Origin: Streptomyces griseiscabiei
GTDB lineage: Bacteria; Actinomycetota; Actinomycetes; Streptomycetales; Streptomycetaceae
NCBI RefSeq assembly: GCF_020010925.1
Contig: NZ_JAGJBZ010000002.1
Span: forward strand, 3,886,224 to 3,950,223
Direction of reading: 5' to 3'
DNA length: 64,000 nucleotides
Below are positions 18,790 through 36,037 of the stretch, piece by piece (position 1 is the stretch's first letter; each line of letters opens with the position of its first letter). The notes beneath the pieces were generated by a model. That model did no database searches and had not been told where the DNA came from. It saw nothing but the letters and a program-made list of their open reading frames with translations. The translations under genes were made by a program, and so were the position numbers.

Positions 18790-19400
18790 TCAGTTGTTGC
18801 TCGGGGTCAGGCGTCCCTCGAAGGCGATCTGGAACGCGTTGAGGGGTGCTTTCCAGCGCATGGTCCACCTCTTGCGGCCCTTCCCGGTCGGGTCCAGGCT
18901 CATCAGTGCCATGTAGATGCACTTGAGGGCGGCGGCCTCGTTGGGGAAGTGCCCGCGGGCGCGAACAGCTCGGCGGATGCGTGCGTTGACGCTCTCGATC
19001 GCGTTCGTGCTGCAGATGACCTTGCGGATCTCGACGTCGAAGGAGAGGAAGGGCACGAACTCGGCCCAGGCGTCGGACCACAGCTTCACGATCGCCGGAT
19101 ACTTGTGGCCCCATGCCTCCTGGAACTCCAGGAAGCGTTCCGTGGCGGCGTCCTCGCTGGGAGCGGTGTAGACCGGTTTGAGTGCCTTGGCGACCTTGTC
19201 CCAGTCCTGACGGGCGGCGTAACGGAACGAGTTCCGCAGCAGATGCACCACACACGTCTGGACGATCGTGCGAGGCCAGACGGTCTCCACGGCCTCGGGC
19301 AGACCCTTGAGCCCGTCACAGACCAGCATGAGCACGTCGTCCAGACCGCGGTTCTTGAGCTCGGTGAACACGTGCAGCCAGTACTTTGCTCCCTCTGTCA
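18790..19400 (-). pseudogene. IS256/Mutator-family transposase, C-terminal half
   Basis: About 200 codons of the C-terminal half of an IS256-type transposase (full length about 400 aa). It begins at EGAKYWLHVF and includes LMLVCDGLKGLPEAV (one DDE Asp), IVQTCVVHLLRNSFRY, and the catalytic Glu in STNAIESVNARIRR. The N-terminal half is absent: the reading frame runs at about 19400 into unrelated repeat sequence. It cannot be active alone. Confidence 0.85.
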
Positions 19401-19402
19401 GC

Positions 19403-19480
19403 GGCCAGTTAGATTTCCCCACGCGCGGCCACTTCGTCTCCCCACCACGGCCACTTCAATTCCCCACTGGCGGCCACTTG
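19403..19480 (+). repeat. Tandem GGCCACTT...CCCCA repeats, IS21-like end
   Basis: Four related units start at 19403, 19427, 19449 and 19472, each reading roughly GGCCAcTTcnnnTCCCCA at 22-24 base spacing. The last is partial. Multiple short repeats at an end are a hallmark of IS21-family elements, where the transposase binds. Inverted counterparts lie at 20106-20138. Confidence 0.55.
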
Positions 19481-19497
19481 GTGTACGCAGCGTGACG

Positions 19498-20043
19498 TCA
19501 TCCCCGGCGGTGTTCGCCCCACCACGGCAGGATCGGAGGCAGGTCGCTGAGGCCGCGGACCGGCCGCTTCGGCATCGGCGACTCCCCATCATCCCCGTCC
19601 CACCGGCGCGCGTACTGGTCCGGGAGGGTGCCCCAGCCCCAGTAGGGAACCGGGCGGTCGGGCACCTCGCCGAGTTCCTCAAGGGGATCAATACGCTTCT
19701 CCGCCACCGTGCACAGGTGCGCCCAGTCATCGCCCATGTCGAAGACATAGGCGAACTGTTCGCCAGCCTGCAGCCTGCTCAGCTTGGTCACATGGCCGTC
19801 CACGGTGCCGTCCGGGGCCTCGCCGTCCCACCAGTCCAGGGGGCTGATGTGGGTGGCGCCGGACAACGTGAACAGGTGCAGGTGAGACAAGTCCCAGCGC
19901 GCGAAGGCGAGATCGATGGCCGAGGCGAGCTGCGCGAAGGAGTGCGACCGAGCAGCGGCGAACACCCGGCCGGGACGCGGCCAGAGGTCCGCACCGTGAC
20001 CGGAAACCAACTCCACCCGGATCGACAGCCAGGTACGAGCCAC
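19498..20043 (-). CDS. Plasmid pRiA4b ORF-3-like protein
   Basis: A 181-aa protein of the pRiA4b ORF-3/IS1096 TnpR-like family. Recognisable features are SHLHLFTLSG, the FAYVFDMGDDWAHLCTV core, and the end PVPYWGWGTLPDQYARRWDGDD. GTG 20043 has AGGGGG 8 bases upstream; an ATG 36 bases earlier is also possible. The family often travels with insertion sequences, and here the gene lies exactly between two inverted clusters of IS21-like repeats, so it may be a passenger. Its biochemical function is unknown. Confidence 0.8.
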   Translation of the reverse strand: MARTWLSIRVELVSGHGADLWPRPGRVFAAARSHSFAQLASAIDLAFARWDLSHLHLFTLSGATHISPLDWWDGEAPDGTVDGHVTKLSRLQAGEQFAYVFDMGDDWAHLCTVAEKRIDPLEELGEVPDRPVPYWGWGTLPDQYARRWDGDDGESPMPKRPVRGLSDLPPILPWWGEHRRG

Positions 20044-20105
20044 GTCAAAACCCCCTCTGCCAGATTCGCGAGCCGACACCGAGGCTACTGACTGTGACAG
20101 CCGAC

Positions 20106-20138
20106 TGGGGAATCGAGCTGACCGTACATGGGGAATTT
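20106..20138 (+). repeat. Inverted partner of the IS21-like repeats
   Basis: Two units, TGGGGAATCGAGCTGACC at 20106-20123 and TGGGGAATTT at 20129-20138, are in the opposite orientation to the repeat cluster at 19403-19480. They match its TTCAATTCCCCA core. Their 3' edge merges with the left inverted repeat of the ISL3-type element, which may have inserted here. Confidence 0.5.
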
Positions 20139-21843
20139 CTAGGTTCAGGCCGCGATTCCGTGAATCCCCAGGTCATCGCCCGACTGCGGGAACGTTTCTT
20201 GTGGGGATTGCCCTGGCATGGGGGTTGTGGCGGTCGAGGATGTGCTGTTTCCCGGGATCGATGTGCGAGTCACGGCGGTGCACGTCACTGCAGAGAGAGT
20301 CGCCGTCGAGGCCACGTCATGCGGGCGACCACCTCCCTGTCCAGACTGCGGCTGTCCGGGACGTCGCGTGCACTCTCGATACGTGCGCCGGATAGCCGAA
20401 CGCCCGGCTGCGGGACGGCCGTTGGCCATCTCGCTCAGCGTGCGTCGGTTCTTCTGCGACCGGCCCGAGTGCCGCCGGCGGACGTTCGTCGAGCAGGTCT
20501 CGGAGCTGAGCGAGCGGTACCGGCGTCACAGCGTCGGGCTGCGGCGATGGATGCAGGCCATCGCAACGTTCCTGGGCGGACGCCCAGGTGAACGCCTGTG
20601 CCAGGCCCTGCAGTTACCCACCGGCCGCACCTACCTGCTGGGGTTGCTCACTGCCCCGGCAGTGCCCGAGCGGTCGCCTCGGGTGCTGGGTGTTGACGAG
20701 TTCGCCTTCCGCAAGGGCTGGCGTTACGGCACCGTCCTGGTCGACATCGAGGCGGCCCAGGTCGTGGACGTCCTGCCGGACCGGGACGCGGTGACCTTCG
20801 CTGCCTGGCTGCGTGAACACCCCGGCGCGGAGATCATCTGCAGGGACCGGGCCAGCGCCTACTCCAAGGCCGTCCGCGACGCCGCCCCCGGCGCTCAGGA
20901 GGTCGCCGACCGATGGCACCTGCTGCACAACCTCTCCTCCGCGGTCGAGAAGACATGCCACCAGCACCGCCCCTGCCTGCGCAAACAGGCCGAAGCCGAC
21001 CAAGACGCAAAGCCCAGGCGGATCATCAATCCGCTTCCTCCGCCGACTCTGCCGCCCACAAAGATGGCCGTCCGTACCGTCGACCGGTACTCGGACATCC
21101 ACCGCCTGCTGGCACAGGGGCACACCATCTCCGAGATCGCCCGGCGACTGCACCTGGACCGCAAGACCGTCCGCCACTTCCGCGACACCGGCCTCGACGA
21201 GCTGCTGGCCTCCGCCCGGTGCGGCCGCCCCAAGGGAGTGCTGGAGCCGTTCACCGCCTACCTCACCGAACGGTTCACCGACGGCGTGACCAGCCCGACC
21301 GACCTCTTCCGCGAGATCCGCCAACGCGGCTACCAGGGCAGCGATCTACCCGTGCGCCGTTACGTGGCCGGACTCAAGACCGGGACCGTCGAACCCGCCC
21401 GCGGAGCCATCCCGAGCCCACGCAAGATCACCACTTGGATCATGGTTCCCCGCAGTGCCCTGAAGCACCAAGAGGAGGACGAACTCCTCAAAGTCCGGCT
21501 GGCGTGCCCGGACATCGCCCGGGCCTGCGACCTCGCCTGGACCTTCCACGACCTGGTCCAACACCGGCGCGGTCACCGGCTCTTGGAGTGGGTCCGCCAA
21601 GCCGAGCACGACGCACCCGCCCCGGTCTTGTCCTTCGCGCAGAGTCTGTGCCTCGACCTCGACGCGGTCACCGCCGGCCTCACACTGCCGTGGAGTTCGG
21701 GCATCGTCGAAGGCCACGTCAACCGCATCAAGACCATCAAGCGGACCATGTACGGCCGAGCCTCGTTCCGCCTCCTCCGCACCCGAATCCTGCTCCGATC
21801 ATGATCTGCGGATTCACGGAATCGCGGCCTGAACCTAGAAATT
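20134..21843 (+). mobile_element. Complete ISL3-type insertion sequence
   Basis: A 1710-bp element bounded by perfect 34-bp inverted repeats, 20134-20167 (AATTTCTAGGTTCAGGCCGC at the outer edge) and 21810-21843. One intact transposase gene fills it. No 8-bp target duplication is seen: the left flank is the IS21-like repeat and the right flank is an IS110 gene fragment. This suggests a rearrangement after insertion. The outer AATTTCTA may be part of the repeat or of the target. Confidence 0.88.
20218..21804 (+). CDS. ISL3-family transposase
   Basis: Full-length transposase, 528 aa. N-terminal zinc-finger cysteines are visible (CPDCGCPG and CDRPECRRR) and the DDE first Asp lies in VLGVDEFAFRKG. 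The second Asp is in IICRDRASAYSKAV, and an inserted HTH (ISEIARRLHLDRKTVRHF) is near residue 300. The catalytic Glu region is LPWSSGIVEGHVNRIKTIKR, near the end. No frameshift or stop is present and the element ends are perfect, so the element could be mobile or recently arrived. Confidence 0.93.
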   Translation: MGVVAVEDVLFPGIDVRVTAVHVTAERVAVEATSCGRPPPCPDCGCPGRRVHSRYVRRIAERPAAGRPLAISLSVRRFFCDRPECRRRTFVEQVSELSERYRRHSVGLRRWMQAIATFLGGRPGERLCQALQLPTGRTYLLGLLTAPAVPERSPRVLGVDEFAFRKGWRYGTVLVDIEAAQVVDVLPDRDAVTFAAWLREHPGAEIICRDRASAYSKAVRDAAPGAQEVADRWHLLHNLSSAVEKTCHQHRPCLRKQAEADQDAKPRRIINPLPPPTLPPTKMAVRTVDRYSDIHRLLAQGHTISEIARRLHLDRKTVRHFRDTGLDELLASARCGRPKGVLEPFTAYLTERFTDGVTSPTDLFREIRQRGYQGSDLPVRRYVAGLKTGTVEPARGAIPSPRKITTWIMVPRSALKHQEEDELLKVRLACPDIARACDLAWTFHDLVQHRRGHRLLEWVRQAEHDAPAPVLSFAQSLCLDLDAVTAGLTLPWSSGIVEGHVNRIKTIKRTMYGRASFRLLRTRILLRS

Positions 21844-24723: not shown

Positions 24724-25116
24724 GTGACCCCTGCTGTTGCGGCCCCTGTGAAGGTCTCGGACTTCTACTGTCACCAGGCCATTCCTGGCCTCGTGGAGAT
24801 CGAGCGGGTGATGGAGACGGACCGGGTGCTCGCGTTTCATCACACCAAGCCGTCACACCCGGTGCACATCGTGGTGGTGCCCAAGGAGCACGTTCCGTCG
24901 CTTGTGGATCTGGGGGACGGTGGCCCCGAACTGCTGGCGGAGGTGATGGACGTGGTGGCCAAGGTCGCGGACCAGGTACGTGAGAAGCACGGCGCCGCCT
25001 CGGTGACCACCAACGTCGGCCTGTACCAGGAGTCCAAGCACCTGCACTGGCACGTCTGTCACCGCGGTGAGAGCGACGAGCAGATCCTCGGGATGTACGG
25101 CCACGGTGACGACTGA
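24724..25116 (+). CDS. HIT-family nucleotide hydrolase
   Basis: A 130-aa histidine-triad protein. The catalytic HLHWHVC motif (HxHxHxx) is near residue 103, preceded by the usual NVGLYQESKHLHWH context, and HPVHIVVVPKEHV lies in the first half. Relatives hydrolyse AMP-linked nucleotides such as adenosine phosphoramidates or aminoacyl-AMP. It starts at GTG 24724 and ends only 3 bases from the end of the convergent MurG-like gene. An aminoacyl-adenylate hydrolase next to a synthetase paralogue cluster is suggestive but unproven. Confidence 0.88.
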   Translation: MTPAVAAPVKVSDFYCHQAIPGLVEIERVMETDRVLAFHHTKPSHPVHIVVVPKEHVPSLVDLGDGGPELLAEVMDVVAKVADQVREKHGAASVTTNVGLYQESKHLHWHVCHRGESDEQILGMYGHGDD

Positions 25117-25119: not shown

Positions 25120-26217
25120 CTAGCGAGCCCGGCGGCTCCGCGGCCGGGCGGCGGCCAGGGTCTGCTCGGCGATGCGGCTTGCCGCCTGGTGGATGACGGC
25201 GGGGTCCGGCCGGCGGAAACTCGCGTGGGCGTCGGCCAGGTGGAGGCAGGCGGCGACGAGTGCGGCCCCGCCGGTGAGGGCGTCGTCGTCCTGGATGACG
25301 TGGCAGCGTCCCTCGTGGCGCCGTGCGTAGGCCTCGGCGTTGACCAGCTGGTCACCGCGGCTGACGCTGGCCGGCAGCGGGATGAGGACGGCGCGCTTGC
25401 CGAGCGCCTCCAACTCGGCCAGGGTCGTCGCCCCGGCCCGCCCGATGACCAGGTCGGCCAGCCACAGCGCGTCGGTCATCTCCTGGTGGAGGTACTCGAA
25501 CTGCCAGTAGCCGGCCGTTGCTTCGAGAGCCGGGTCGAGGTTGCCCTTCCCACACACGTGGATCACCGCGAACCGGCCGAGGAGCTTGTTCAGTTGGCTG
25601 CGTACGGCGTCGTTGATGCGGGCGGAGCCGCTGCTACCGCAGAAGATGAGCAGGACCTCGGCGCCGGGCCTGATACCGAGCCGGCTGCGCAGCTGGCCCG
25701 GGTTGCCGTCGCCGAGGTCGTGCCGTAGGGGCAGGCCGGTGACGACCGTCTTGCGGGCGAGCCAGCGCGGTGGCTTGGACCGGGCCGGTTCGGAGAGGCA
25801 GACGCGGGCTGCCATGCGGGCGAGGATCCGGTTGGCGAGACCGAGGGAGTGGTCGGACTCGTGGATGACAACCGGAACGCGGCACAGCCAGGCGGCGATG
25901 CCGACGGGGACGGTGACGTAGCCGCCCTTGCTGAACACGGCGTCGGGACGCTCGTGGTGCATGGCACGCCGGGCGGCGGCGATACCGCGCAGGACGGTGA
26001 AGGGCATCCGGATGTTGCTCCATGACCCGTAGCGCTTCAGGCCGGCGGAGGGGACCGAGCGGAAACGGATATTGGCCTTCTGCGCGTACTCGTGCTCGAT
26101 GCTTCCGTGCCGCCCGAGGAACACGAGTTCGTTCCCGCTCTGGGTGAGCTGGGTGGCGACGGAAAGAGCCGGAACGACGTGCCCGGCGCTGCCGCCACCG
26201 GTGATCGCAATTTTCAT
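25120..26217 (-). CDS. MurG-like UDP-GlcNAc glycosyltransferase paralogue
   Basis: GT28-family glycosyltransferase, 365 aa, close to MurG in length. The N-terminal glycine-rich loop GGGSAGHVVPA (residues 7-17) and the FSKGGYVTVPVGIAAW and IHESD motifs are MurG-like. The donor-binding RAGATTLAELEALGKRAVLIPLP is in the C-terminal half. Essential murG normally sits in the division cluster, so this is a second copy with a probable dedicated acceptor. ATG 26217 was chosen over an adjacent TTG. It lies 113 bases downstream of a tRNA-Pro-like gene on the same strand, and could be read through from that promoter. Confidence 0.9.
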   Translation of the reverse strand: MKIAITGGGSAGHVVPALSVATQLTQSGNELVFLGRHGSIEHEYAQKANIRFRSVPSAGLKRYGSWSNIRMPFTVLRGIAAARRAMHHERPDAVFSKGGYVTVPVGIAAWLCRVPVVIHESDHSLGLANRILARMAARVCLSEPARSKPPRWLARKTVVTGLPLRHDLGDGNPGQLRSRLGIRPGAEVLLIFCGSSGSARINDAVRSQLNKLLGRFAVIHVCGKGNLDPALEATAGYWQFEYLHQEMTDALWLADLVIGRAGATTLAELEALGKRAVLIPLPASVSRGDQLVNAEAYARRHEGRCHVIQDDDALTGGAALVAACLHLADAHASFRRPDPAVIHQAASRIAEQTLAAARPRSRRAR

Positions 26218-26299
26218 CAATACCGTTTCCGGGTTCGCATGACCGATGCAGGGGAGTTCGATATTCCTTCAGCGCTACTCCGCGCCCGTTTACGGTCTT

Positions 26300-26338
26300 T
26301 GACTGGTCGGGGCGCGAAGTAGGGGCTGACTGGTCGGG
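26300..26338 (-). repeat. Direct repeat duplicating the tRNA 3' end
   Basis: TGACTGGTCGGG occurs at 26300-26311 and 26327-26338. The second copy is the complement of the 3' acceptor end of the tRNA-like gene including CCA (CCCGACCAGTCA). Duplication of a tRNA 3' end is what site-specific integration or excision leaves, though 12 bases is short. Confidence 0.5.
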
Positions 26339-26406
26339 CCGGCCGGATTTGAACCAGGCTCCTCGGCAACGCTTTTGCCGTGCTCCACCGCTTGAGCTAC
26401 GACCCG
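26331..26406 (-). tRNA. tRNA-Pro-like gene with anomalous anticodon loop
   Basis: A 76-base cloverleaf with encoded CCA. The acceptor stem CGGGTCG pairs with CGGCCCG over all seven positions (one G-U). Then come T8 A9, D stem GCTC/GAGC with loop AAGCGGTG (GG present), anticodon stem CGGCA/TGCCG fully paired, variable loop AGGAG, and T stem CCTGG/CCGGC (one mismatch) with loop TTCAAAT. C1-G72 and A73 are tRNA-Pro identity features. The anticodon loop is AAAGCGT: position 33 is A instead of the near-universal U and 34-36 would read AGC, so normal decoding is doubtful. A strong -35/-10 pair lies upstream and a prolyl-tRNA synthetase paralogue is the previous gene on the strand. Confidence 0.8.
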
Positions 26407-26424
26407 TCCACTGTGGTGGGCATC

Positions 26425-26454
26425 ACGCTAGGGGCTTTCGTGTTCAAGCGTCAA
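26425..26454 (-). promoter_or_regulatory. Housekeeping-type promoter for the tRNA-like gene
   Basis: On the minus strand, TTGACG (26454-26449) and TAGCGT (26430-26425) are separated by 18 bases. The tRNA 5' end is 18 bases after the -10 element, leaving a leader of about 10 bases, as is usual for stable RNA genes. Five of six -35 bases and the key -10 positions match the HrdB consensus. Confidence 0.75.
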
Positions 26455-26537: not shown

Positions 26538-26577
26538 GAATAGCGTCGCCGCGACGGCTGTTGCGGCGACGCTATTC
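26538..26577 (-). terminator. Perfect 15-bp hairpin after the ProRS-like gene
   Basis: GAATAGCGTCGCCGC (26538-26552) pairs perfectly with 26563-26577 across a 10-base loop. It begins 29 bases after the synthetase stop and lies upstream of the tRNA promoter, so it probably ends the long operon. No U tract is seen. Confidence 0.75.
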
Positions 26578-26605: not shown

Positions 26606-28270
26606 TTATCCGCAGGTGGCGAGTTGGGGAATGTGGCTTGATTCGGTGATGGTGGTTCGTCCGGTCCAGCGGCTGATGACTTCGACTTCCTCGGCGGGAC
26701 GGTCGGGGGAGAGCACGGCGACGTGCGGCAGGCCTAGGAGGCGGGCGTAGCGGAGTTTCTCACCGGTGGGCAGGGGCCGGTCGTCGACGAAGAGGCCCAC
26801 GCCGCGGGCGGTGAGGTCGTCCACGAGGCGGTCGGCGCGTTCCTGCATGTGCGGTTGGTCGGCGCGCAGCACGGTGAGATGGACGTCGGCCGGGCCGGTT
26901 CCGGGCTTCCAGCGCAGGCCTTGGTGGTCGCGGTGGAGGTCGGCGGCGGTCTGCATACAGCGAGTGATGCCGATGCCGGAGCAGGCCATCCAGGGCACGG
27001 CCTGGCGTCCGGTGTGGTCGGTGAAGGCAAGTTTCATCGGCTGGGAGTACTGGGTGCCCAGCTCGAAGACGTGAGCGACTTCGACGGCCCGAACGGCGCG
27101 GTGGGTTCCCGGGCACAGGGTGCAACGGCTGCCGTCCGAGGCCTCGGCGAGGTCGCGGCCTACGGCCTTCAGGGCGCGTAGCCCCTTGTCCCCGTTCCAG
27201 GTCACGCCGCCTCGCAGTCCGTCGCCGCCGTCAGAGATGGAGAACTCGTCCAGGCCGACGGCGGAATGGTCGAACAGCAGGAGCGCGTCGGGGCTGTTGG
27301 CGGCATCCCACGGGGTGAGCGTTCCGGCCTCTTTGCCGAGGAGGCCCGGCAGGTCCTGCGGTTCGATGAGGCTGACGCGCGAGGCGCCCGTGGCGGCGGC
27401 GACCTTGCGGGCGCTGACCTTGAGATCGGAGCGGACGTTCACGGCGGCCGGCTGGATGACGCCGTCCGGATGGGTGAGGGTGAAGACGATCACGTTGACG
27501 ACGGGTGCGTCGGATGGCGGTGCGGGTCGCGCGGCGGTGACGGCGCCGTCACCGCGGTTTCCGCAGTGGTCGCAGGCGACGATGGTGCTCTGCCCGGTGT
27601 CGGACAGCACCAGGTGCTCGGTGCTGGGCCCGGCGGAGATGGCGCCGCCGTCGGCGGCAGCCCGGAACACTCCGCTCAGTCCCATGCCGGTCAGGGCTGC
27701 GGTGCAGGCGGAGTTGAGGAAATCCACCGATTCGCGCATGCCGTCGGCGGATGCGTCGAAGGTGTAGGCGTCGGCCATGGTGAACTCGCGGCCGCGCATC
27801 AGCCCGCCGCGTGGGGAGAGTTCGTCGCGGAACTTGCTCGTGGACAAGGACAGCCGTACGGGCAGATCCCTGAAGGAGCGCAAGTGCTCGCGGACCGTGG
27901 CGGAGGCGATCTCTTCCGAGGTCGGCGCGAGGCACATCTCTTCTCCGCTGGAGCTGCGCACCGTCAGTAGAGCGCCTTCGTGCTGGTATGCCTGCCAGCG
28001 GCCGGTCTCTTCCCACAGTCGGCGGCTCTGCAGGGTGGGGGCGGCGAAGGTGAGCGCGCCGCGCTCCTCGAACGCGCGGCGGGCGATCGCCGACATCCGG
28101 TCGTGGACGCGCAGGCCCAGTGGCAGGAGGGTGTGGACGCCTGTGGCGCCGGTGCGGGCCACCAGACCCAGGTGGTACAGCAGGTCGAGAGCGGAATCGG
28201 TGGTCTCGCCCGCGCCGCGGCGGACTGGCGGCCACAGTCGGCTGGCATACAGGGCAGTGGGGGTAGTCAT
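26606..28270 (-). CDS. Prolyl-tRNA synthetase paralogue (class II)
   Basis: A 554-aa protein with the full bacterial ProRS layout: class II core with motif 2 FRDELSPRGGLMRGREF (147-163), an inserted editing-like domain (about 225-370), motif 3 GIGITR (432-437), and a C-terminal anticodon-binding domain (about 460-545). Two pocket motifs differ from normal ProRS: the THEE segment reads TSEE (117-120), and CYGIG reads CSGIG (430-434). ATG 28270 overlaps the glycosyltransferase stop by 4 bases. It may charge the tRNA-Pro-like RNA downstream with proline or an analogue, or join an amino acid directly to a small acceptor as CysRS-like MshC does. A resistance copy is the other option. Confidence 0.9.
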   Translation of the reverse strand: MTTPTALYASRLWPPVRRGAGETTDSALDLLYHLGLVARTGATGVHTLLPLGLRVHDRMSAIARRAFEERGALTFAAPTLQSRRLWEETGRWQAYQHEGALLTVRSSSGEEMCLAPTSEEIASATVREHLRSFRDLPVRLSLSTSKFRDELSPRGGLMRGREFTMADAYTFDASADGMRESVDFLNSACTAALTGMGLSGVFRAAADGGAISAGPSTEHLVLSDTGQSTIVACDHCGNRGDGAVTAARPAPPSDAPVVNVIVFTLTHPDGVIQPAAVNVRSDLKVSARKVAAATGASRVSLIEPQDLPGLLGKEAGTLTPWDAANSPDALLLFDHSAVGLDEFSISDGGDGLRGGVTWNGDKGLRALKAVGRDLAEASDGSRCTLCPGTHRAVRAVEVAHVFELGTQYSQPMKLAFTDHTGRQAVPWMACSGIGITRCMQTAADLHRDHQGLRWKPGTGPADVHLTVLRADQPHMQERADRLVDDLTARGVGLFVDDRPLPTGEKLRYARLLGLPHVAVLSPDRPAEEVEVISRWTGRTTITESSHIPQLATCG

Positions 28271-29373
28271 CGGCGCCCCTCGATCATGGAATGGGACAGG
28301 CGGGCCATCTGTGCGGCAGTGTTGGTGATGGTGTGCAGGCGGGCGTTGGCCGCGGCCGCACGGTGCAGGTCCTGGCGCAACGTCTGGTCGGTGGCCACGC
28401 GGTCGATAAGCGTGGCGAGCGCCGGTGCGTCGCCGCTCCGGTAGGCCAGGCCGCCGTCGCCGAGGGTGTAGTCCAGGCCCGGAAGGTCGCCGTAGAGGAC
28501 GGGCAGGCCGTGGGCCTGGGCTTCGACGGCGACCAGGCCGAAGGCCTCCAGATGGCGGGTGGTGAACACCAGCGCGTCGAATCCGGTGAACCGCTGCCAC
28601 AGTTCCTCGCGCGGAAGGAACAGCTCGAAGGTGACCTGAGCACCCAGGCAGAGACGCTCGACGCACTCCTTGAGCAGCGGGAGCTCGCTGCCGCTGCCGA
28701 TCACGGTGAGGTGGTGCTTGTCCTTGGTGAGGGCGAGGGACTCGATCGCGGTGATGGTGGACTTGTTGGCGTCCAGGCGCCCGGCGTGCAAGAGGTTCAG
28801 CCGGTGCCCGGGCCGGGGCGTGGCGGTCGGCGCGGGTGGAAGGGGGACACCCCAGGGGACGGTCGTCAGCCGGTCGGTGTAGGCGTGGCGGGTGAGCCGG
28901 TCCACCTCGAAGCCCATGGCCGTGTTGGGGACGACGACCTTGGTGCTGGCCGCCACGATCTCGGTGAGGACGTTGGGGGCCTGCTCGCTTTCGGTGGCGG
29001 CGATGACGTCGGTGCCGTGCGCGATGGACACCAAGGGGGTGGTGCCGGCCGCGCGCGCGAACGCGAGCGCGAGCCCGAACCCGAGGTGCTGGGCGTGGAT
29101 GATGTCAGGCTGGTGCGCGCCGATCAGGTCGGCGACCTCGTCGGTCAGCTGGGCTGCGTAGGCGTCGAAACCCGGGCCGTAGGGCTGCTTGTCGGCGGCG
29201 AGCAGGACGGTCTCGGGGAAGTGGTGCCTCCAGGTGCCGCTGCCGGGCAAGCCCGCGAACACAACCCGGAAGTCGCCGCCGAGCCTCTGGTAGACGTCGC
29301 TGCACCAGATCGCCGACCCGCACGAGGGCTCCATCGGCAGGTCGATCCCGGTCAGGATCAGCGGGAGTTGCAT
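28267..29373 (-). CDS. GT4-family glycosyltransferase
   Basis: Retaining glycosyltransferase with GT-B fold, 368 aa. The N-terminal domain has VSIAHGTDVIAA. The C-terminal half carries LLHAGRLDANKS, VIGSGSEL and the donor-binding EAFGLVAVEAQAHGLPVL (E-x7-E). ATG 29373 has GGGGAAG 8 bases upstream; it overlaps the WbqC-like gene by 16 bases and the synthetase gene by 4. Relatives such as MshA use UDP-GlcNAc. With a PIG-L deacetylase two genes upstream, a mycothiol-like order of glycosylation, deacetylation and amino-acid ligation is conceivable. Confidence 0.9.
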   Translation of the reverse strand: MQLPLILTGIDLPMEPSCGSAIWCSDVYQRLGGDFRVVFAGLPGSGTWRHHFPETVLLAADKQPYGPGFDAYAAQLTDEVADLIGAHQPDIIHAQHLGFGLALAFARAAGTTPLVSIAHGTDVIAATESEQAPNVLTEIVAASTKVVVPNTAMGFEVDRLTRHAYTDRLTTVPWGVPLPPAPTATPRPGHRLNLLHAGRLDANKSTITAIESLALTKDKHHLTVIGSGSELPLLKECVERLCLGAQVTFELFLPREELWQRFTGFDALVFTTRHLEAFGLVAVEAQAHGLPVLYGDLPGLDYTLGDGGLAYRSGDAPALATLIDRVATDQTLRQDLHRAAAANARLHTITNTAAQMARLSHSMIEGRR

Positions 29374-30101
29374 GTCGCACTTCCCCTTTCGGCGTGCGGG
29401 AGGTAGGTGTCGAACGAGGTACGCAGCAGCGCGGAGGTACCGGCCCACCCCAGGGCGCACACCGCGTCGATGACGGACAGCCCCGCGATGAACTCCTGGC
29501 GGGGCCACGCCTGGACGTACCGCGGATGGCGATCGGTGAACTCGTTCCACCTGACCGACAGCCGGTGGCGTTCCAGCTCACGGGTGTCGAGGTAGCCGCG
29601 GGTGCCGGATCCGGCCCACAGGATCCCTTCGCCGGCGGCCGCGCAGATCTGGGCCAACCGCTCGGTTTTGTCGGCTGCGGTGATCTTCATCTGGGATGTG
29701 CGCATGAAACGCGCCCGGGAGCCGAGCGCGGTCGCGAGGGCGGTGATCAGGTCGATGTTGAGGTCGGCCAGATATCCGTGGCGGGCCGTCAGCGCCGGGC
29801 CCAGCACGTTCAGGGCCTCGTCGACGTAGGCGGTGCGGGCGTAGGCGAGGCGGATCTGGCGCAGCAGTGTGTCGGGGTCGAAGGAGGGTGCGATCCGGGT
29901 GTCGTTGATGAGCCGGCCGCTCTGGCGTGCAACGGGCACGGTCAGCCAGGCAACTCCGTCGGCGGTCTTGATGCGGTTGCGGTTCTGCCAGCCGCCCTGG
30001 GTGTACTGCACGTCGTCGTAGAAGGCGACCGTGTCGCAGCCGAGCAGAGCCTCACAGAACCCCAGCCATGGGGCGAAGGGCGGCTGTTCGATGTAGATCA
30101 A
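29358..30101 (-). CDS. WbqC-family protein
   Basis: A 247-aa protein of the WbqC family, known from O-antigen and other polysaccharide clusters. The typical beginning is IEQPPFAPWLGFCEALLGCD, followed by YDDVQYTQGGWQNRNRIKT; the C-terminal part has the conserved LERHRLSVRW and FIAGLSVIDAV segments. It starts at TTG 30101, overlapping the previous stop by 4 bases (TTGA). The biochemical role of the family is not firmly settled; a transferase acting on an amino or nucleotide sugar is often assumed. Here it is a candidate for the step that uses the activated amino acid, which is speculation. Confidence 0.85.
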   Translation of the reverse strand: MIYIEQPPFAPWLGFCEALLGCDTVAFYDDVQYTQGGWQNRNRIKTADGVAWLTVPVARQSGRLINDTRIAPSFDPDTLLRQIRLAYARTAYVDEALNVLGPALTARHGYLADLNIDLITALATALGSRARFMRTSQMKITAADKTERLAQICAAAGEGILWAGSGTRGYLDTRELERHRLSVRWNEFTDRHPRYVQAWPRQEFIAGLSVIDAVCALGWAGTSALLRTSFDTYLPHAERGSATCNSR

Positions 30102-30832
30102 GGTCGGGCGTCCTCTCGCGAGGGAGCGAAGGTGAGGGTGAGAAGGGTGGCCTCGAAGGCCTCGAAGGCACGTCCCGCAGCTGCGGCCTCCGGGCGCAGG
30201 GACCATCCGGCCTGGGCGGCGCGGTGGCGGGTGTACCTCTCGCTCAGGTACCAGCGCCCGCCCTGGCTGTGGTGCGAGTCCAGGGCGCGGACCTTGTCGT
30301 CGACGACGTCGGTGACGTCGACGAGGACGGTCGGATGGAAGCCGGAACGGGGGGCGTGGGGTTCGCCGTGGAGCACGGTGTGGCAGGTCGGCACACGGGT
30401 GGCGGCGTTCGCGGCGGCCGCGGCGACCGCCAGGTGGTCCTGGTGGTCGTTGGCCGCTCGCGGGCTGTGGGTGATGAGCAGCGTGCACCCCAGCCGCTTC
30501 AACTCGCTCTCCACCAGGGAGATCAGGTTCAGGTCGGCCACCAGCGCGCCGTCGGTCAGGTGGAGGAAGACCATGTCGATGCCGGTGTCGTGCCAGGCTG
30601 CCGCGACCTCCTTCTCCCGTTCGTCCTCGGTGAGTTGACGGCCGGCGCCGGCGTCTGCGATCGATACGCCGTTCGCGCCGTGGGTGACGACGACGACCGA
30701 CACCATGGCGCCCGCCTCGCGGGCCTTGCGCAGCGTGCCGTAGCACAGCAGCTCGGCGTCGTCCGGGTGGGCGACCACGGCGACCACCCGCTTCACCGGG
30801 CCAGCGGGGGAGGCGGGGGACACGGGCGTCAC
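30098..30832 (-). CDS. PIG-L family N-deacetylase
   Basis: LmbE-like zinc deacetylase, 244 aa. The metal-binding AHPDDAELL is near residue 21 and the second element RAANDHQDHLAV near 125. Family members remove acetyl from GlcNAc in mycothiol (MshB), bacillithiol and antibiotic pathways. GTG 30832 overlaps the upstream stop by 4 bases, and its own stop overlaps the WbqC-like start by 4. Together with two glycosyltransferases it points to an amino-sugar intermediate with a free amine that can be acylated. Confidence 0.91.
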   Translation of the reverse strand: MTPVSPASPAGPVKRVVAVVAHPDDAELLCYGTLRKAREAGAMVSVVVVTHGANGVSIADAGAGRQLTEDEREKEVAAAWHDTGIDMVFLHLTDGALVADLNLISLVESELKRLGCTLLITHSPRAANDHQDHLAVAAAAANAATRVPTCHTVLHGEPHAPRSGFHPTVLVDVTDVVDDKVRALDSHHSQGGRWYLSERYTRHRAAQAGWSLRPEAAAAGRAFEAFEATLLTLTFAPSREDARP

Positions 30833-31353
30833 CGGGCCTCGAAATCACGGTGGACCAGCGACGGCCGGGGCCCCTGGGACCCCTGGTACTTCCCGTCGTA
30901 GAGGACGATCTCTCCCTGCGGGACCCAGAAGGTGACCTGCCCGATCAGCAGCCCGGGATAGATCTTCACGCGCTGCACGGCGTGCAGTTGCAGGGTGAGC
31001 TGCCCGTGGGAGCCGAGGTCGATCAGGTCGGCCGTGCAGTGCACGAACAGGCCCAGGCGCGCGATCGAGGAGCGGGCCCGGATGATCGGCACGTAGGAGT
31101 CGCTGCCGATCTCCTCACGAGTGGAGGCCAGGTAGATGCGATCGGGCTCAAGCACCATGCCCTCGCCGGGGATGGGGTGGGCCTCGAACGAGTTCTCGCG
31201 GGCGCAGTCGAGAACCTCGCTGGTGTACCAGCCGATGTGATCGCCGAGGTGGAAGTTGTAGGAGTTCGGCTGGACCATCCCGGCGTCGAAGGGACTGATA
31301 CGAATGGCCTCGGCCTTGACCTGCGCCGCGATCTCGGGACCGGTGAGGATCAT
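30829..31353 (-). CDS. dCTP deaminase/dUTPase-family protein, catalytic Glu replaced
   Basis: Second of two adjacent Dcd-like proteins, 174 aa. It has the RARSSIARLGL motif and YPGLLIGQVTFW near the C-terminus. At the position of the catalytic base (Glu138 in E. coli Dcd, in LEF) it reads LQL, so Gln replaces Glu. Deamination would be lost if the alignment is right; it may be a structural or regulatory partner of the copy upstream. Start and stop both overlap neighbours by 4 bases. Confidence 0.88.
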   Translation of the reverse strand: MILTGPEIAAQVKAEAIRISPFDAGMVQPNSYNFHLGDHIGWYTSEVLDCARENSFEAHPIPGEGMVLEPDRIYLASTREEIGSDSYVPIIRARSSIARLGLFVHCTADLIDLGSHGQLTLQLHAVQRVKIYPGLLIGQVTFWVPQGEIVLYDGKYQGSQGPRPSLVHRDFEAR

Positions 31354-31904
31354 GCAGCCACCCCCGGCCGCACGCACGCTGCGCCGAGGCCGGCGGCCAC
31401 GGCCGGCGAGCACGGGGCGGGCTCGCTGATGTGGGCGTAGTGCCCGGTGTAGGGCTGTCGGTCGCCGACCGGCGCCCAGAAACTGACCTGCCCGATCCTC
31501 ATCTCCGGGTAGACCCGCAACGGCTCGACGACCTTGATCTCCAGCGTCCACCGGTGAGCGGGGCCGAGCTGGCCGAGGTCGGCGGAGATCTGCAGGAACA
31601 TACCCAGCCGACCGAGCGAGGACCGGCCGATCAGACTCGTCACGAACTCGGTACTGCCGAGGGTCTCCACGGTCGCGCCCAGGTACACGACCCCTGGGCG
31701 CAGGACATACCCCTCGTCGGGCACCTCGATCGTGGCTGTCTCGGCCGGGCACGTCGGGTCGGCCGGATCGCTGATGACCTGCTTCAGCGTCCTGCCGAGG
31801 CGGTAGTTGTAGCTGTTGGGGTTCAGCAGATCCGCGTCGAACGGGGCGATGGTGATCTGCCCGCCTTCGACCGACGCCCGGATCGCGGTGCCCGTGAGGA
31901 TCAT
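31350..31904 (-). CDS. dCTP deaminase/dUTPase-family protein
   Basis: First Dcd-like paralogue, 184 aa. The conserved IGRSSLGRLGM, the WTLEIKV segment holding the catalytic Glu, and YPEMRIGQVSFW are all present. The N-terminus (NPNSYNYRLG) is the usual substrate-side motif. The C-terminus carries about 20 extra residues. As a pair inside a biosynthetic-looking operon, these proteins may act on an unusual cytosine nucleotide or bind a nucleotide sugar. The usual role, dUMP supply, would not explain two copies. Confidence 0.9.
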   Translation of the reverse strand: MILTGTAIRASVEGGQITIAPFDADLLNPNSYNYRLGRTLKQVISDPADPTCPAETATIEVPDEGYVLRPGVVYLGATVETLGSTEFVTSLIGRSSLGRLGMFLQISADLGQLGPAHRWTLEIKVVEPLRVYPEMRIGQVSFWAPVGDRQPYTGHYAHISEPAPCSPAVAAGLGAACVRPGVAA

Positions 31905-32713
31905 CGTGTCCCTCCCAACTCTCCCGCGCCGACGTAGCTCTGCCGCAGCAGCCGCCGTTCGTCGGCGTCGTAGCAGTCCTGGCCGTCGCCGAGCGGCATC
32001 CGGCCGTGCGCGTAGCGGTGCTGGTCGAAGACGAGCAGATCGCCCGGCATCAGACGGATGGTCGAGCGGCAGGCGACGACGGCGTCGACGAACCGGCCGA
32101 ACGCCGCGGCGGTCGCCTCGGGCTCCTCGACGTCGACGAGCTCGCCGCGCTCAAGGTGCGGGTGGGCCTTGGCGGTGAACCGGATCGGCGCACTGCCGTC
32201 GATGTGTTCCGGCAGGACGGGGAACCGCTCCATGCTCTCGCCGACGCCGTGCACGTCCTGGTCGGCGAAGTATGCGAAGACCGGCTGGGCCAAAAGTGTG
32301 CGGTCGCCGTCCGAAAGGGAGCGAGCAGCCTGCCAGAGGTCGGCCAGCGCCGACGCTCCACCGCCCAGCGGGTCGGCGCGGACGCAGTACAGGGCGATGT
32401 AGCGGGGGAGACGGTCACGGTCGACCATGTCGACGTGCAGCCGGTTCTCTCCAACGCCGTGCGTTCGCCCGGGGTCGGCGGCCAGGCTGACTGTCAGGTC
32501 GCTCCAGCAGCCGTCGCCCGGGTACACGGACAGGACGGGGCCAAGGCCGGAGAGCAGACTCAGCCCGAGTTCCAGGTTCAGCGTGTGGTCCTGCCCGTCG
32601 AACCGGACCAGGGCTCGTCCGCTGCCCGGGCCGGTGACGACGTTGGCGAGCTGGCCGCTTGCGTGCGGGCCATGGGTCAGGTCGCGGCCATTCAGGGTCA
32701 GCACATCACTCAT
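31901..32713 (-). CDS. TauD/clavaminate synthase-like Fe(II)/2-oxoglutarate oxygenase
   Basis: A 270-aa non-haem iron oxygenase. The iron ligands are the HVD in NRLHVDMVDRD and a distal His in DQHRYAHGRM. The 2-oxoglutarate-binding Arg lies in RRLLRQSY close to the C-terminus, and GGGASALADL is the family's core motif. It is a little shorter than most. ATG 32713 overlaps the phosphoesterase by 8 bases; the stop overlaps the first Dcd-like gene by 4. Such enzymes hydroxylate or desaturate free or carrier-bound substrates, a typical tailoring step. Confidence 0.86.
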   Translation of the reverse strand: MSDVLTLNGRDLTHGPHASGQLANVVTGPGSGRALVRFDGQDHTLNLELGLSLLSGLGPVLSVYPGDGCWSDLTVSLAADPGRTHGVGENRLHVDMVDRDRLPRYIALYCVRADPLGGGASALADLWQAARSLSDGDRTLLAQPVFAYFADQDVHGVGESMERFPVLPEHIDGSAPIRFTAKAHPHLERGELVDVEEPEATAAAFGRFVDAVVACRSTIRLMPGDLLVFDQHRYAHGRMPLGDGQDCYDADERRLLRQSYVGAGELGGTR

Positions 32714-33884
32714 GAGGACTCCGAACGAGATCGGTGAGGGTGTCGCGCAGGGTGCGCAGAGGATGGACGGGGCGGGCGGCCAAGCCGAATCGGCCGGCGA
32801 GATAGCCGGTGGTCGCGACCGTGACCGGGCCCGGAACAGCATCAGAGGTGGCGGCGATGAGTTCCTCACCAAGGGCGTGAGCACGAGCTGCCAGGGCGTC
32901 GAGCGGGTACTCGACGTCCAGGACGACAAGATCACTGTCGAACGGGGCGCAGGCCATCACGTCCCGGCGCGTCACGGTCTGCGCCAGGCCGCCGCGCAGG
33001 GTGTAGAGGTTGAGTACAAACGCCTGTACATCGAGGCTGCGGCGGGCCTGCTCGGCGAGGCCGCCCGCGACGTCGCGGCGAGTGGCCAGCGGCGTGTCCA
33101 GGGTGCCGAGCAACTCGTTGCCCCATGTCGCGTACGCGTCCAGGTCGGCATCCAGGCCGTCTCCGGACGGAGGGCAGGGCGGACATGCGTCCTGGGCGAT
33201 GCTGTGCGAGCCGGCCGGATCGAGGGCAAGGCGCAACAGCCCCGCTCCGCCCGCCGGCGGTTTGGCGACGTGGCGGCCTGCCTCCGTCCAGTGTGACCAC
33301 GGCGAGTGGCAGTGTGCGGACACGACCATGTGCAGCGGCCAGCCGGCGTTCTGGTCGGCGACATCGGCAAGGAACCCTGTGTGGCTGACCCCGATGACGA
33401 TGTCGGCGCCGGCTTCCCACAGCCTGTCCGCCTCCGCGCCGATCATTTCCGCTGTGGGGTCACAGTACGAAAAGCCGGCCCGCTCATGATGGGGGATCGT
33501 CTCGAAGGCCTGCCGCCCCAGATAGCCGATGACGCCCAGACGGTGCGTGCCCCGCTGAAGAATCAGTCCGCTGACCCAGCGGCCCTCAAACGCGGCAGGC
33601 GGACGGAGGTTGGCGCAGATCACGGGAGGGAAGCGACCCGGAGCCCGCAACCGCAGCAGATCGGGAAGGTCATGGTTGCCGGGCACGACCGCGTCGTACA
33701 GCTCCGACAGGAGCCGCTCCTCCACCCGTCCCTGTGAGAAGGCGTGGAAGGCGTGGCCGGAGAAGAAGTCCCCCGCGTCCACGACCACGGCGCCGTTCTC
33801 CTTCGCCGACCGCGTGGCAGCGAGCGCAGCACGGCCGTCGGGGAGGGCGGAGTGGAAGCAGCCGGTGGCGATCACTTCGAGCAT
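32706..33884 (-). CDS. UshA/5'-nucleotidase-like metallophosphoesterase
   Basis: Calcineurin-like phosphoesterase of the 5'-nucleotidase family, 392 aa, with the C-terminal substrate-recognition domain. Metal-site motifs are VVDAGDFFSG, VPGNHDLP, GVSHTGFLAD and SAHCHSPW. The first motif, normally DxH, reads CFH (residues 9-11), so one metal ligand is Cys. No signal peptide is present, unlike secreted UshA, so it should act inside the cell, perhaps on a nucleotide or sugar phosphate of the pathway. It overlaps both neighbours. Confidence 0.87.
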   Translation of the reverse strand: MLEVIATGCFHSALPDGRAALAATRSAKENGAVVVDAGDFFSGHAFHAFSQGRVEERLLSELYDAVVPGNHDLPDLLRLRAPGRFPPVICANLRPPAAFEGRWVSGLILQRGTHRLGVIGYLGRQAFETIPHHERAGFSYCDPTAEMIGAEADRLWEAGADIVIGVSHTGFLADVADQNAGWPLHMVVSAHCHSPWSHWTEAGRHVAKPPAGGAGLLRLALDPAGSHSIAQDACPPCPPSGDGLDADLDAYATWGNELLGTLDTPLATRRDVAGGLAEQARRSLDVQAFVLNLYTLRGGLAQTVTRRDVMACAPFDSDLVVLDVEYPLDALAARAHALGEELIAATSDAVPGPVTVATTGYLAGRFGLAARPVHPLRTLRDTLTDLVRSPHE

Positions 33885-34480
33885 GGTCGGGTCCTGCCGA
33901 TCGCCACCACGCGCAGGACCGACGGCGCCGGCGGGTAGAAGTCGGCCCGCGCGATGCCGTCGACCTCCTCGACCCGCAGGCCGGTATCCCCGTCGGCCGC
34001 CAGCTGCTCGGCGGCGAGCGCCGGCATCACCACCAGCCCGCGCGCCAGCGTCGGCGAGCCGAACGCGTAGCGGACCAGAGAAGCGGCCAGTTCCGGGGCG
34101 AACGGCATGATCGACAACAGCGTGGAGCCCGCCTCCAGGCCGTGGTCGAGATCGACGTCGCGGACGTCGTCGATCGTGATCCGGGCGCGATCGCCGAACT
34201 CGTCGAGCCTCTGCTCCAGTTGGGCCTGCAATCGGTGGTCCTTCTCCACCGCCCAGATGGGGTGGCCCGCCGCGGCGATGGTCGTGGAGAGCGTGCCCAG
34301 TCCGGCGCCGACCTCAAGGACTTGGGCTCCGTTCGGTATCTCCGCCCGCTCCAGGAGGCGGAGGGCTGAGTCGGGCGACCTCAGGAAGTGCTGACCGAGG
34401 TCTGTGCGTATCTGGAACCCACTGGCCGCGAAGTCGTCGGCGAGTATCGGGGGTGTGCCGAGGAGCGGTGACTGCTGCAT
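33872..34480 (-). CDS. KsgA/Erm-like SAM-dependent methyltransferase
   Basis: A 202-aa protein of the rRNA adenine N6-dimethyltransferase family. The N-terminal GQHFLRSP and the SAM-binding EVGAGLGTLS match the family. The catalytic NxPY motif is not found; the equivalent stretch reads LLSIMPFAPEL. It lacks the C-terminal helical domain of KsgA. ATG 34480 follows GAAGGGA by 8 bases. It is the first gene of the operon, divergent from an HTH regulator. It may be a resistance-type rRNA methylase, but the altered motif makes a different substrate likely. Confidence 0.82.
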   Translation of the reverse strand: MQQSPLLGTPPILADDFAASGFQIRTDLGQHFLRSPDSALRLLERAEIPNGAQVLEVGAGLGTLSTTIAAAGHPIWAVEKDHRLQAQLEQRLDEFGDRARITIDDVRDVDLDHGLEAGSTLLSIMPFAPELAASLVRYAFGSPTLARGLVVMPALAAEQLAADGDTGLRVEEVDGIARADFYPPAPSVLRVVAIGRTRPCSK

Positions 34481-34640
34481 CACTGAGTTCCCTTCACGAT
34501 GCATGCACGCGACGCCGGTGATCGGCGTACTGGTAACGGAGACAAGTCCTCAGCCCATCGGTGCTGGTCCGGACCGTCCTTGGGATCGCTGGAGTGATCG
34601 AGTGTCGGGCAACTGTGCGTGCGGCAAAAGGAGTTGGCGG

Positions 34641-34658: not shown

Positions 34659-34708
34659 TGTCGGTTCGTAGCTACGCTCAGAGCAGGCACGGTTGATTGG
34701 ATGGCGAC

Positions 34709-36037
34709 GTGGCCGAGAAGACGCATCCGCTGGCACGGGCTCGGATGGCGCGTGGGATGACAGCAGTTGATCTTGCCCGGGAGATCCGTGACGCTGCCGA
34801 ACGCCGCGGCCTGAGATCGGGCGTCGACAAGCAGCGTGTTTACAAATGGGAGACGCAGGGGGTCACCCCCGACGCCGACTCTCAGATCTATATCGCCGAG
34901 GTATTCGGGGTCCCTGCCGCAGCGGTGGATCCTCGCTCGTGGCCGAACTGGTTGCCGGGTGTCGGCGGCATGGTGGTCCCCCTCGGCCAAGCCAGTCCGG
35001 TACCGGCCCTCCGAGAGGCATTGCGAACGACCATGGAACGCTCTTCCCGCCGCACTTTCCTGACCGCGATCTCCGGTAGTTCTCTGGTCACGCTGGCCAG
35101 CACCTGGGCGTCGCCCGATTCCTGGGCTGTGACAAACGATCCGGAGCTCGGCACCAAAGCCGTCGGGGACGAGGTGGTGATCCTGCTCGAAGAGACCAGC
35201 GCCCGCCTGGCCACCCAAGCGACCGAGCAGCGCCAGCACACCGCGCCCTTGGTCGACGCCCTGCTCACCACGGTCACGGACATCATCGCAGGCAGCCGGT
35301 ACAGCCGGTCGGTCAAGCTGCGTCTCCACGTGCTCGCCGCGAGCCTGAGCCAGACCGTGGGCTGGCACCGGTTCGACTACGGGTTGCACGCTGAGGCGAG
35401 CCAGTACTGGATCGCAGGCCTGCACAGCGCCCACACCGGAGGCGACCGCGACATGGGCGCGGCTCTCCTCGGCGACCTCGCCTACCAGGCCTCGTGGCGC
35501 GACGACCCGCGCACGGCCGCCGGCATTCTCGAACGAGCCTTGTCCGGCACCCGTCACCCGGCTGCCCAGTCGCTTCTCCAACTCCGTCTCGCGCGTGCCC
35601 TGGCGGCACAGGGCGAGCGGCGCGCCACCCTGCGGGCTCTCACCGCAGCGGAGCACCTTCTTGACGCCTCGTCCCAAGAACCCGTGCCGGCCTGGTGCGT
35701 GTGGATGTCCAGCGCCGATCTGGCCGTCGACTCGGGGCAGGCCCTGCTCGACCTGGGCGACACGCGCCGTGCCCATCAACTCATTAGCGAGGGCCGGAAG
35801 CTGCTGCCGCCCAGCCGCGACAAGACGCGCGGCGTCTTCCGTGCCTACGAGGCCCGCAGCCACCTCAACCTGAGAGAGCCCGAACGCGCGGCCACGGCCG
35901 CGATGGAAGCACTTCAGGTCGCGCAGCGCATCGGAGCCCCGCGCTGCGTCGACCTTGTCCGTGATCTCATTCCGGCGTTCGAGGCCTATTCCCACGCTCA
36001 GGGGGTCGGCGAGCTTCTGGATCAAGTCGCTGCCTAA
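34709..36037 (+). CDS. XRE-type transcriptional regulator with TPR-like domain
   Basis: A 442-aa regulator. An N-terminal HTH covers about residues 5-70 (RARMARGMTAVDLAREI, then VYKWETQGVTPDADSQIYIAEVFGV). A twin-arginine-like RRTFLTAISG stretch follows near 115 and a helical-repeat C-terminal domain occupies the rest (AYQASWRDDPRTAAGIL and similar). This architecture is common in streptomycete regulators that sit beside the operon they control. GTG 34709 was chosen; a TTG 12 bases upstream is possible. It is divergent from the tRNA-synthetase-like operon and probably controls it. Confidence 0.85.
   Translation: MAEKTHPLARARMARGMTAVDLAREIRDAAERRGLRSGVDKQRVYKWETQGVTPDADSQIYIAEVFGVPAAAVDPRSWPNWLPGVGGMVVPLGQASPVPALREALRTTMERSSRRTFLTAISGSSLVTLASTWASPDSWAVTNDPELGTKAVGDEVVILLEETSARLATQATEQRQHTAPLVDALLTTVTDIIAGSRYSRSVKLRLHVLAASLSQTVGWHRFDYGLHAEASQYWIAGLHSAHTGGDRDMGAALLGDLAYQASWRDDPRTAAGILERALSGTRHPAAQSLLQLRLARALAAQGERRATLRALTAAEHLLDASSQEPVPAWCVWMSSADLAVDSGQALLDLGDTRRAHQLISEGRKLLPPSRDKTRGVFRAYEARSHLNLREPERAATAAMEALQVAQRIGAPRCVDLVRDLIPAFEAYSHAQGVGELLDQVAA

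What the first reader, a model, noticed from the sequence alone, without database searches (positions are those of the whole stretch)
26331..26454. Dedicated tRNA-Pro-like gene that probably cannot decode
Seen: a complete cloverleaf with encoded CCA, tRNA-Pro acceptor identity (C1-G72, A73), a full 7-bp acceptor stem and 5-bp anticodon stem, and a good HrdB-type promoter 18 bases upstream. The anticodon loop is AAAGCGT, with A at position 33 and AGC at 34-36. Known: U33 is nearly universal in elongator tRNAs, and ProRS reads G72, A73 and anticodon G35 G36. Inference: this RNA is expressed, is charged by the adjacent ProRS paralogue, and serves a biosynthetic step instead of translation.
Basis: partly seen in the sequence, partly recalled or inferred. 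Interest (0 to 1): 0.95.

Follow-up and report, generated by a model that had tools for sequence, protein, structure and literature searches.

The report
Dedicated proline tRNA in biosynthesis operon
A known odd Streptomyces tRNA and its private proline-charging enzyme, so far explained as machinery for deliberate protein errors, sit in every intact copy examined inside one conserved gene cluster that looks built to attach an amino acid to a sugar, which suggests the tRNA feeds biosynthesis rather than the ribosome.

The parts
26331..26406 (-). tRNA-ProX gene (tRNA-ProA type: anticodon AGC, A33), CCA encoded
26425..26454 (-). HrdB-type promoter-like site of the tRNA, TTGACG-N18-TAGCGT
   Evidence: pattern in 15 of 15 loci (13 of 15 with exact TTGAC...TANNNT)
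26538..26577 (-). 15-bp perfect hairpin between ProRSx and the tRNA promoter, probable terminator
   Evidence: a perfect stem of 9 bp or more in 9 of 15 loci; 4-7 bp in the other 6
26606..28270 (-). ProRSx, bacterial-type prolyl-tRNA synthetase paralogue, 554 aa
28267..29373 (-). GT4 glycosyltransferase (16 NCBIfam hits, all below cut-off, MshA first; BshA fourth)
29358..30101 (-). WbqC-family protein; predicted fold aligns to BshC; proposed aminoacyl transferase
30098..30832 (-). PIG-L family N-deacetylase (best NCBIfam hits BshB2 and BshB1, below cut-off)
30829..31353 (-). DCD2, dCTP-deaminase-like, TLQ where DCD1 and the solved deaminase 2qxx have TLE
31350..31904 (-). DCD1, dCTP-deaminase-like, keeps TLE
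31901..32713 (-). TauD/TfdA-family dioxygenase
32706..33884 (-). metallophosphoesterase
33872..34504 (-). KsgA/Erm-like adenine methyltransferase, short, below NCBIfam cut-offs
25120..26220 (-). MurG-like GT28 glycosyltransferase downstream of the tRNA, below MurG cut-offs
24724..25116 (+). HIT-domain protein closing the cluster
34697..36037 (+). divergent NsdA-family regulator; a close relative (65-88%) beside the cluster in 4 of the 14 other loci

Best explanation
The tRNA and ProRSx are a private charging pair inside a biosynthetic operon. ProRSx loads proline (or a proline-like acid) onto tRNA-ProX. The charged tRNA serves as activated aminoacyl donor for an amide on an amino sugar: a GT4 (and/or the MurG-like GT28) attaches GlcNAc to an acceptor, PIG-L removes the acetyl group, and the WbqC protein, whose predicted fold aligns to BshC, moves the prolyl group onto the free amine. 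The DCD pair, phosphoesterase, methyltransferase and TauD oxygenase would make or decorate the acceptor, which may be a nucleoside. A changed anticodon and A33 would keep this tRNA from competing at proline codons. Shown here: gene content, colinearity, co-occurrence, RNA conservation, predicted fold. Published (seen through reviews): charging with Pro and decoding in E. coli. Inferred: in-host expression, use as a biosynthetic donor, the WbqC step (about 0.45 on its own), product and acceptor.
Against: E. coli work is reported to show that the family's tRNAs do deliver Pro to the ribosome. Foldseek finds no PDB match to WbqC at E 0.001 or better. Sequence profiles of WbqC and BshC do not align (hhalign probability 0.2%) and no WbqC member matches the BshC Pfam family. 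In 8 distant Streptomyces WbqC loci the only tRNA found is a tRNA-Ser in L076; aaRS neighbours were looked for only among 10 proteins and in 4 annotated stretches, none found; so WbqC need not be tRNA-dependent. Annotated ProRSx of S. sirii (397 aa) and S. goshikiensis (416 aa) are short while WbqC clusters report the same longest-contig lengths; I could not open those loci. Only 31 of 80 ProRSx clusters share a longest-contig length with one of 75 WbqC clusters; WbqC clusters at about 55% identity (P0178, P0179, P0181-P0183, P0186) had no such match and were not examined. No expression, charging or metabolite evidence in the host.
Confidence: 0.6

Rival explanations
1. Dedicated mistranslation, as published: ProRSx and tRNA-ProX put proline at Ala (or Thr, Asn) codons to diversify the proteome under stress.
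For: E. coli reporter and mass-spectrometry results and altered antibiotic tolerance reported for the family (commentary PMC10365949, part 1 of 2 read; passages of PMC11415595, PMC9437257 and PMC10057733). In the window GCT is 33 of 469 Ala codons in 12 cluster-region genes and 60 of 1050 in 17 other genes that I picked, so the codon is available.
Against: It does not explain why the pair is fixed inside one colinear 11-gene operon in 14 of 14 intact loci, why ProRSx is broken in the one locus that lost the operon, why U33 is replaced in 15 of 15, or why the 'meaning' switches between Ala (10 loci) and Thr (5 loci) with the same operon.
Confidence: 0.2
2. Both: the pair serves biosynthesis, and leaking Pro-tRNA-ProX causes some mistranslation as a side effect or secondary stress trait.
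For: Fits both the operon context and the E. coli decoding reports.
Against: No host evidence for either part.
Confidence: 0.12
3. Regulatory RNA: the uncharged or charged tRNA-like RNA senses proline or the pathway product and controls the downstream MurG-like gene.
For: Own promoter-like site and, in 9 of 15 loci, a strong upstream hairpin; the MurG-like gene lies 110 bases downstream. A pseudo-tRNA of Bacillus cereus alters antibiotic resistance without acting in translation (PMC3399842, search listing only).
Against: A dedicated, conserved synthetase with a changed anticodon-binding domain is more than a regulator needs; compensatory changes keep a full cloverleaf including the acceptor.
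Confidence: 0.05
4. Self-resistance: ProRSx is an insensitive ProRS protecting the producer from its own product.
For: Resistant aaRS paralogues are known, such as mupirocin-resistant IleRS2 and albomycin-resistant SerRS2 (passages).
Against: A review says ProRSx seems to charge only tRNA-ProX, and tRNA-ProX has no Pro anticodon in 15 of 15 loci, so the pair cannot rescue proline codons.
Confidence: 0.02
5. A tRNA remnant left as an integration site of a mobile element.
For: Transposase genes lie at 18790-21804; one homologous cluster is on a linear plasmid.
Against: Same intergenic place, promoter and structure in 15 of 15 loci.
Confidence: 0.01

Closest known systems
ProRSx / tRNA-ProX (tRNA-ProA, -ProT, -ProN) of Streptomyces and Kitasatospora
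   Same: Same tRNA features (A33, A34, tRNA-Pro acceptor end, AGC or AGU), same neighbouring ProRS paralogue, same hosts including S. turgidiscabies (L002). This gene is a member.
   Different: In the passages I could read, it is described as mistranslation machinery with unknown host function, and no biosynthetic operon is mentioned. The primary papers (PNAS 2021, JBC 2023) are not held, so they may already discuss the neighbourhood.
Bacillithiol synthesis BshA-BshB-BshC
   Different: No detectable sequence homology of WbqC to BshC; WbqC is half the length; the amino acid would be proline-like; a dedicated aaRS and tRNA are present here.
Mycothiol synthesis MshA-MshB-MshC
   Same: GT4, PIG-L deacetylase and an aaRS paralogue; amide of an amino acid on glucosamine.
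   Different: MshC, a class I CysRS paralogue, apparently acts without tRNA (passage); here the aaRS is a full class II ProRS with a cognate tRNA.
aaRS paralogues predicted to act with an unknown ligase on amino sugars (Biol Direct 2010, PMC2922099)
   Same: Predicted aaRS plus linked ORF that forms an amide on a sugar amine (passages).
   Different: The passages name a SerRS-based and a MetRS-based system; 'prolyl' does not occur in the text and no dedicated tRNA was seen in the passages.
Aminoacyl-tRNA-dependent natural product enzymes (CDPS, SbzA, PEARLs, GNAT-fold transferases)
   Same: Use charged tRNA as activated amino acid outside the ribosome (abstract, outline and passages of PMC12945691).
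   Different: A find in that review returned no 'tRNA gene' or 'dedicated'; here the cluster carries its own tRNA.
B. cereus pseudo-tRNA tRNAOther (listing); staphylococcal non-proteinogenic tRNA-Gly (recalled)
   Same: tRNAs used outside translation, linked to cell-wall traits.
   Different: No synthetase-paralogue operon like this one is known to me.

Membership tests
tRNA-ProX / ProRSx pair | tRNA-Pro-type acceptor end: C1-G72, A73 | tested here: met
   15 of 15 loci
tRNA-ProX / ProRSx pair | A33 instead of U33, and A34 | tested here: met
   15 of 15 loci
tRNA-ProX / ProRSx pair | Non-Pro anticodon AGC, AGU or AUU | tested here: met
   AGC in 10, AGU in 5 of 15; AUU not seen
tRNA-ProX / ProRSx pair | A15-A48 and G21 | tested here: met
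   A15 in 15 of 15; A48 in the window if the extra T-stem base is bulged as Rfam pairs it; G21 in 13 of 15 with the window among them, A21 in L006 and L042 (read)
tRNA-ProX / ProRSx pair | Adjacent ProRS isoform with changed anticodon-binding domain | tested here: met
   ProRSx ends 199 bases upstream; 96% identical to an S. brasiliscabiei member; the stretch GVKFTDSELIG of this genome's ordinary ProRS is replaced by variants of GEKxRYAxxLG in the 10 family members aligned
tRNA-ProX / ProRSx pair | Charging with Pro and decoding in vivo | not testable with these tools
   Reported for relatives in E. coli
BshC family (for WbqC) | Match to Pfam Rossmann-like_BshC | tested here: not met
   43 of 43 aligned members match WbqC PF08889; BshC is not among the 11 families matched at E 10
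BshC family (for WbqC) | Profile-profile homology | tested here: not met
   hhalign probability 0.2% between 43 WbqC rows and 23 BshC rows from a mostly Paenibacillus list; both profiles shallow
BshC family (for WbqC) | Shared Rossmann-type core fold | tested here: met
BshC family (for WbqC) | Full BshC length with coiled-coil domain (domain from passage) | tested here: not met
   WbqC 247 aa against 540 aa in 4wbd
Aminoacyl-tRNA-dependent biosynthetic pathway | A transferase that consumes the charged tRNA | not testable with these tools
   WbqC is the only candidate by elimination
Anti-phage defence system | Match to PADLOC models | tested here: not met
   10 cluster proteins scanned; 9 without a match, the KsgA-like protein matches mad2 over 87 residues (3.6e-12), taken as a generic methyltransferase match

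The most novel reading that the evidence does not exclude
ProRSx/tRNA-ProX is a natural orthogonal synthetase-tRNA pair evolved to keep a biosynthetic aminoacyl donor out of the ribosome, and WbqC proteins (and by fold BshC) are aminoacyl-tRNA-dependent amino-sugar N-aminoacyltransferases. This would give BshC its missing donor, Cys-tRNA, and would mean the reported mistranslation is a by-product of moving the tRNA into E. coli.
Probability: 0.3. Interest if true: 0.92.

Novelty: new variant of a known kind. Interest (0 to 1): 0.72.

Why it matters
[quoted passage not shown] If the pair belongs to a biosynthetic operon, that example needs re-reading, a cryptic family of amino-sugar conjugates becomes findable, and a concrete donor (charged tRNA) can be tested for WbqC and for BshC, whose ligation mechanism a 2015 review calls unknown. 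It would also be a natural synthetase-tRNA pair already insulated from translation.

Tried and rejected
Whole-window Rfam at gathering threshold and whole-genome RF00005 missed the tRNA; a short stretch found it. A mir-986 match (20.7 bits, cut-off 70) overlaps the hairpin: taken as chance.

Rows dropped before the counts: of 24 loci (L008-L017, L019-L024; 29-34% identical, taken as ordinary ProRS) were not scanned for tRNAs. The genus search for ProRSx was cut at E 1e-130, the phylum and family searches at 1e-160 and 1e-150, so the deeper clade (P0071-P0081) would be missed, and I did not see its loci. The phylum sample found only the window's own genome (1 of 396); the family sample 5 of 394, the window's and the broken L041 genome among them.

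Literature: searches for aaRS plus tRNA in clusters, WbqC, ProRS in S. turgidiscabies, dCTP deaminase/PIG-L nucleoside clusters, WbqC/amino sugar and BshC showed no description of this operon in their listings. ProRSx returned 4 papers: of three I saw passages (with 128, 45), of one part 1 of 2. The primary papers are not held, nor the BshC structure paper; so 'not described before' is not claimed. Passages on BshC in PMC12719100, PMC7278568 and PMC6282198 do not name a donor.

Correction: my TauD query was in a wrong frame (it held stops, as did the TauD rows); one search repeats it correctly, and 14 of 14 intact loci then match.

Full report
What is there. The window (64 kb, 69% GC) lies in a 10.6-Mb genome of the genus that holds S. 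lanatus (G319 is L003), so Streptomyces. On the minus strand at 26406-26331 is a 76-nt tRNA gene that ARAGORN names tRNA-Ala(AGC). Its ends are those of tRNA-Pro: C1-G72, A73, encoded CCA. The five ordinary tRNA-Pro genes recovered from this genome (three GGG, one UGG, one CGG) begin CGGG and end CCCGAC in the same way but carry U33 and xGG anticodons. The anticodon loop here is AAAGCGU, so A33 and AGC.

It is conserved. Others fetched were duplicates: G319, G079, G028 and G242 match L003, L004, L007 and L018 by contig place, and L043 matches L006. Sixteen of the 24 loci were dropped as ordinary ProRS and not scanned. A tRNA is present at the same place in 15 of 15. A33, A34, G35 and U38 are invariant; position 36 is C in 10 and U in 5, giving AGC or AGU. 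Stems covary: 99.4% of cells paired, 5 pairs with changes on both sides, 0 of 500 shuffles as high on four of five measures (the fifth, further pair types, 131 of 500). The two unpaired cells are C27/A43 in L004 and A31/C39 in the decayed L041. The promoter pattern T(T/C)G(A/C)(C/A)-N17-20-TANNN(T/C) starts at -41 to -50 in 15 of 15; the strict form TTGAC...TANNNT occurs 15 times on both strands of all these loci, 13 of them at this spot.

It is already known. ProRSx and tRNA-ProA/T/N are a published pair (search). From passages in three reviews and part 1 of 2 of a commentary: ProRSx charges tRNA-ProX with Pro; in E. coli this gives Pro at Ala, Thr and Asn codons; A33, A34, A15-A48 and G21 are noted as odd; the host function is unknown. 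The primary papers are not held. L002's tRNA, from S. turgidiscabies, differs from this one at 3 of 76 positions. So 'cannot decode' is not supported by the literature, even though A33 may weaken decoding.

The context is a conserved operon. Reading from 34504 down: KsgA/Erm-like methyltransferase, metallophosphoesterase, TauD oxygenase, DCD1, DCD2, PIG-L, WbqC, GT4, ProRSx, then a hairpin, the tRNA with its own promoter, a MurG-like GT28 and, convergent, a HIT protein. All 11 proteins are found, colinear, in 14 of 15 loci, at 51-93% identity in the 13 other than the window (TauD row corrected there). A close relative of the divergent regulator is beside the cluster in L001, L002, L004 and L034. 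The fifteenth locus, L041, is a ruin: only a GT4 fragment, ProRSx in two frames with a stop, the tRNA with an A31-C39 mismatch and no CCA, and MurG-like and HIT genes.

Co-occurrence. Across 392 genomes of the genus: ProRSx at E 1e-130 in 8, window and ruin included; the anticodon-arm pattern with one mismatch allowed in 10, namely those 8 plus two that give no tRNA; WbqC in 15, of which 7 close (62-100%), exactly the 7 with an intact operon, and 8 distant (30-35%). The pattern came from known members, so divergent tRNAs could be missed. A phylum sample gave 1 of 396, a family sample 5 of 394, with the window's own genome in each count. In the protein search the ProRSx clade (P0004-P0081; 41-90% identity in the 27 rows I aligned) stands apart from ordinary ProRS, mostly 31-34% (the best 120 of 6799 are listed).

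How I think it works. ProRSx loads tRNA-ProX; GT and PIG-L make a free-amine sugar on an acceptor; WbqC forms the amide from the charged tRNA; TauD and the methyltransferase decorate. The DCD pair (DCD1 keeps the TLE of the solved deaminase 2qxx, DCD2 has TLQ, in 14 of 14 loci; that this Glu is catalytic is recalled) and the phosphoesterase hint at a nucleoside acceptor. A private tRNA makes sense if the amino acid is a proline analogue that must not enter proteins, or if supply must be separate. All of this paragraph is inference. MshC-like direct adenylation is possible for WbqC and would leave the tRNA unexplained.

Against. Decoding in E. coli is real according to the reviews. Two species have annotated short ProRSx with a WbqC cluster of the same longest-contig length; if the operons are intact, ProRSx would not be strictly needed (a review says E. 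coli ProRS can charge the tRNA). By that crude measure only 31 of 80 ProRSx clusters pair with a WbqC cluster, as clusters hide members. The 14 intact loci are related and are not 14 independent events. There is no host experiment.

Verdict. Observation confirmed. The object is known; its operon setting and the BshABC-like reading are what I add, with the caveat that I could not read the two primary papers. I rate it a new variant of a known kind, interest 0.72.

Noticed in passing
30829-31904: Two adjacent dCTP-deaminase-like genes: DCD1 keeps TLE as in the solved deaminase 2qxx, DCD2 has TLQ, in 14 of 14 intact loci; possibly a hetero-oligomer or a new reaction.
   Followed up: partly
26331-26406: Rfam scans of the whole window and whole genome do not list this tRNA although it scores 41.3 bits against a cut-off of 29 in a short scan, so such tRNAs may be under-annotated.
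   Followed up: partly
L041 (G058): Fossil copy of the cluster: pathway genes lost, ProRSx broken, tRNA decaying, MurG-like and HIT genes still open.
   Followed up: yes
L007 and L041: Encoded CCA lost from the tRNA gene in these two loci.
   Followed up: no
26300-26338: A 12-mer at the tRNA 3' end (CCCGACCAGTCA on the minus strand) is repeated 27 bases downstream in the window; no exact counterpart seen by eye in the 40 bases shown after the tRNA in other loci.
   Followed up: no
18790-21804: Mutator-family and ISL3 transposase genes on the left side of the cluster, a possible sign of past mobility.
   Followed up: no
33872-34504: Short KsgA/Erm-like methyltransferase below all NCBIfam cut-offs: could modify an adenine product or give self-protection.
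   Followed up: no
L034 19154-24793: Next to the plasmid-borne cluster lies another set with two radical SAM genes and a second amino acid-tRNA ligase-related gene.
   Followed up: no
own genome C5:334245-334768: A group of four tRNA matches, two of them weak (41.5 and 34.1 bits).
   Followed up: no
L072, L073, L074, L075, L078, L079: Other Streptomyces loci pair WbqC with PIG-L without a tRNA found nearby, one next to GTP cyclohydrolase I (L072) and one next to a GT4 (L078).
   Followed up: partly
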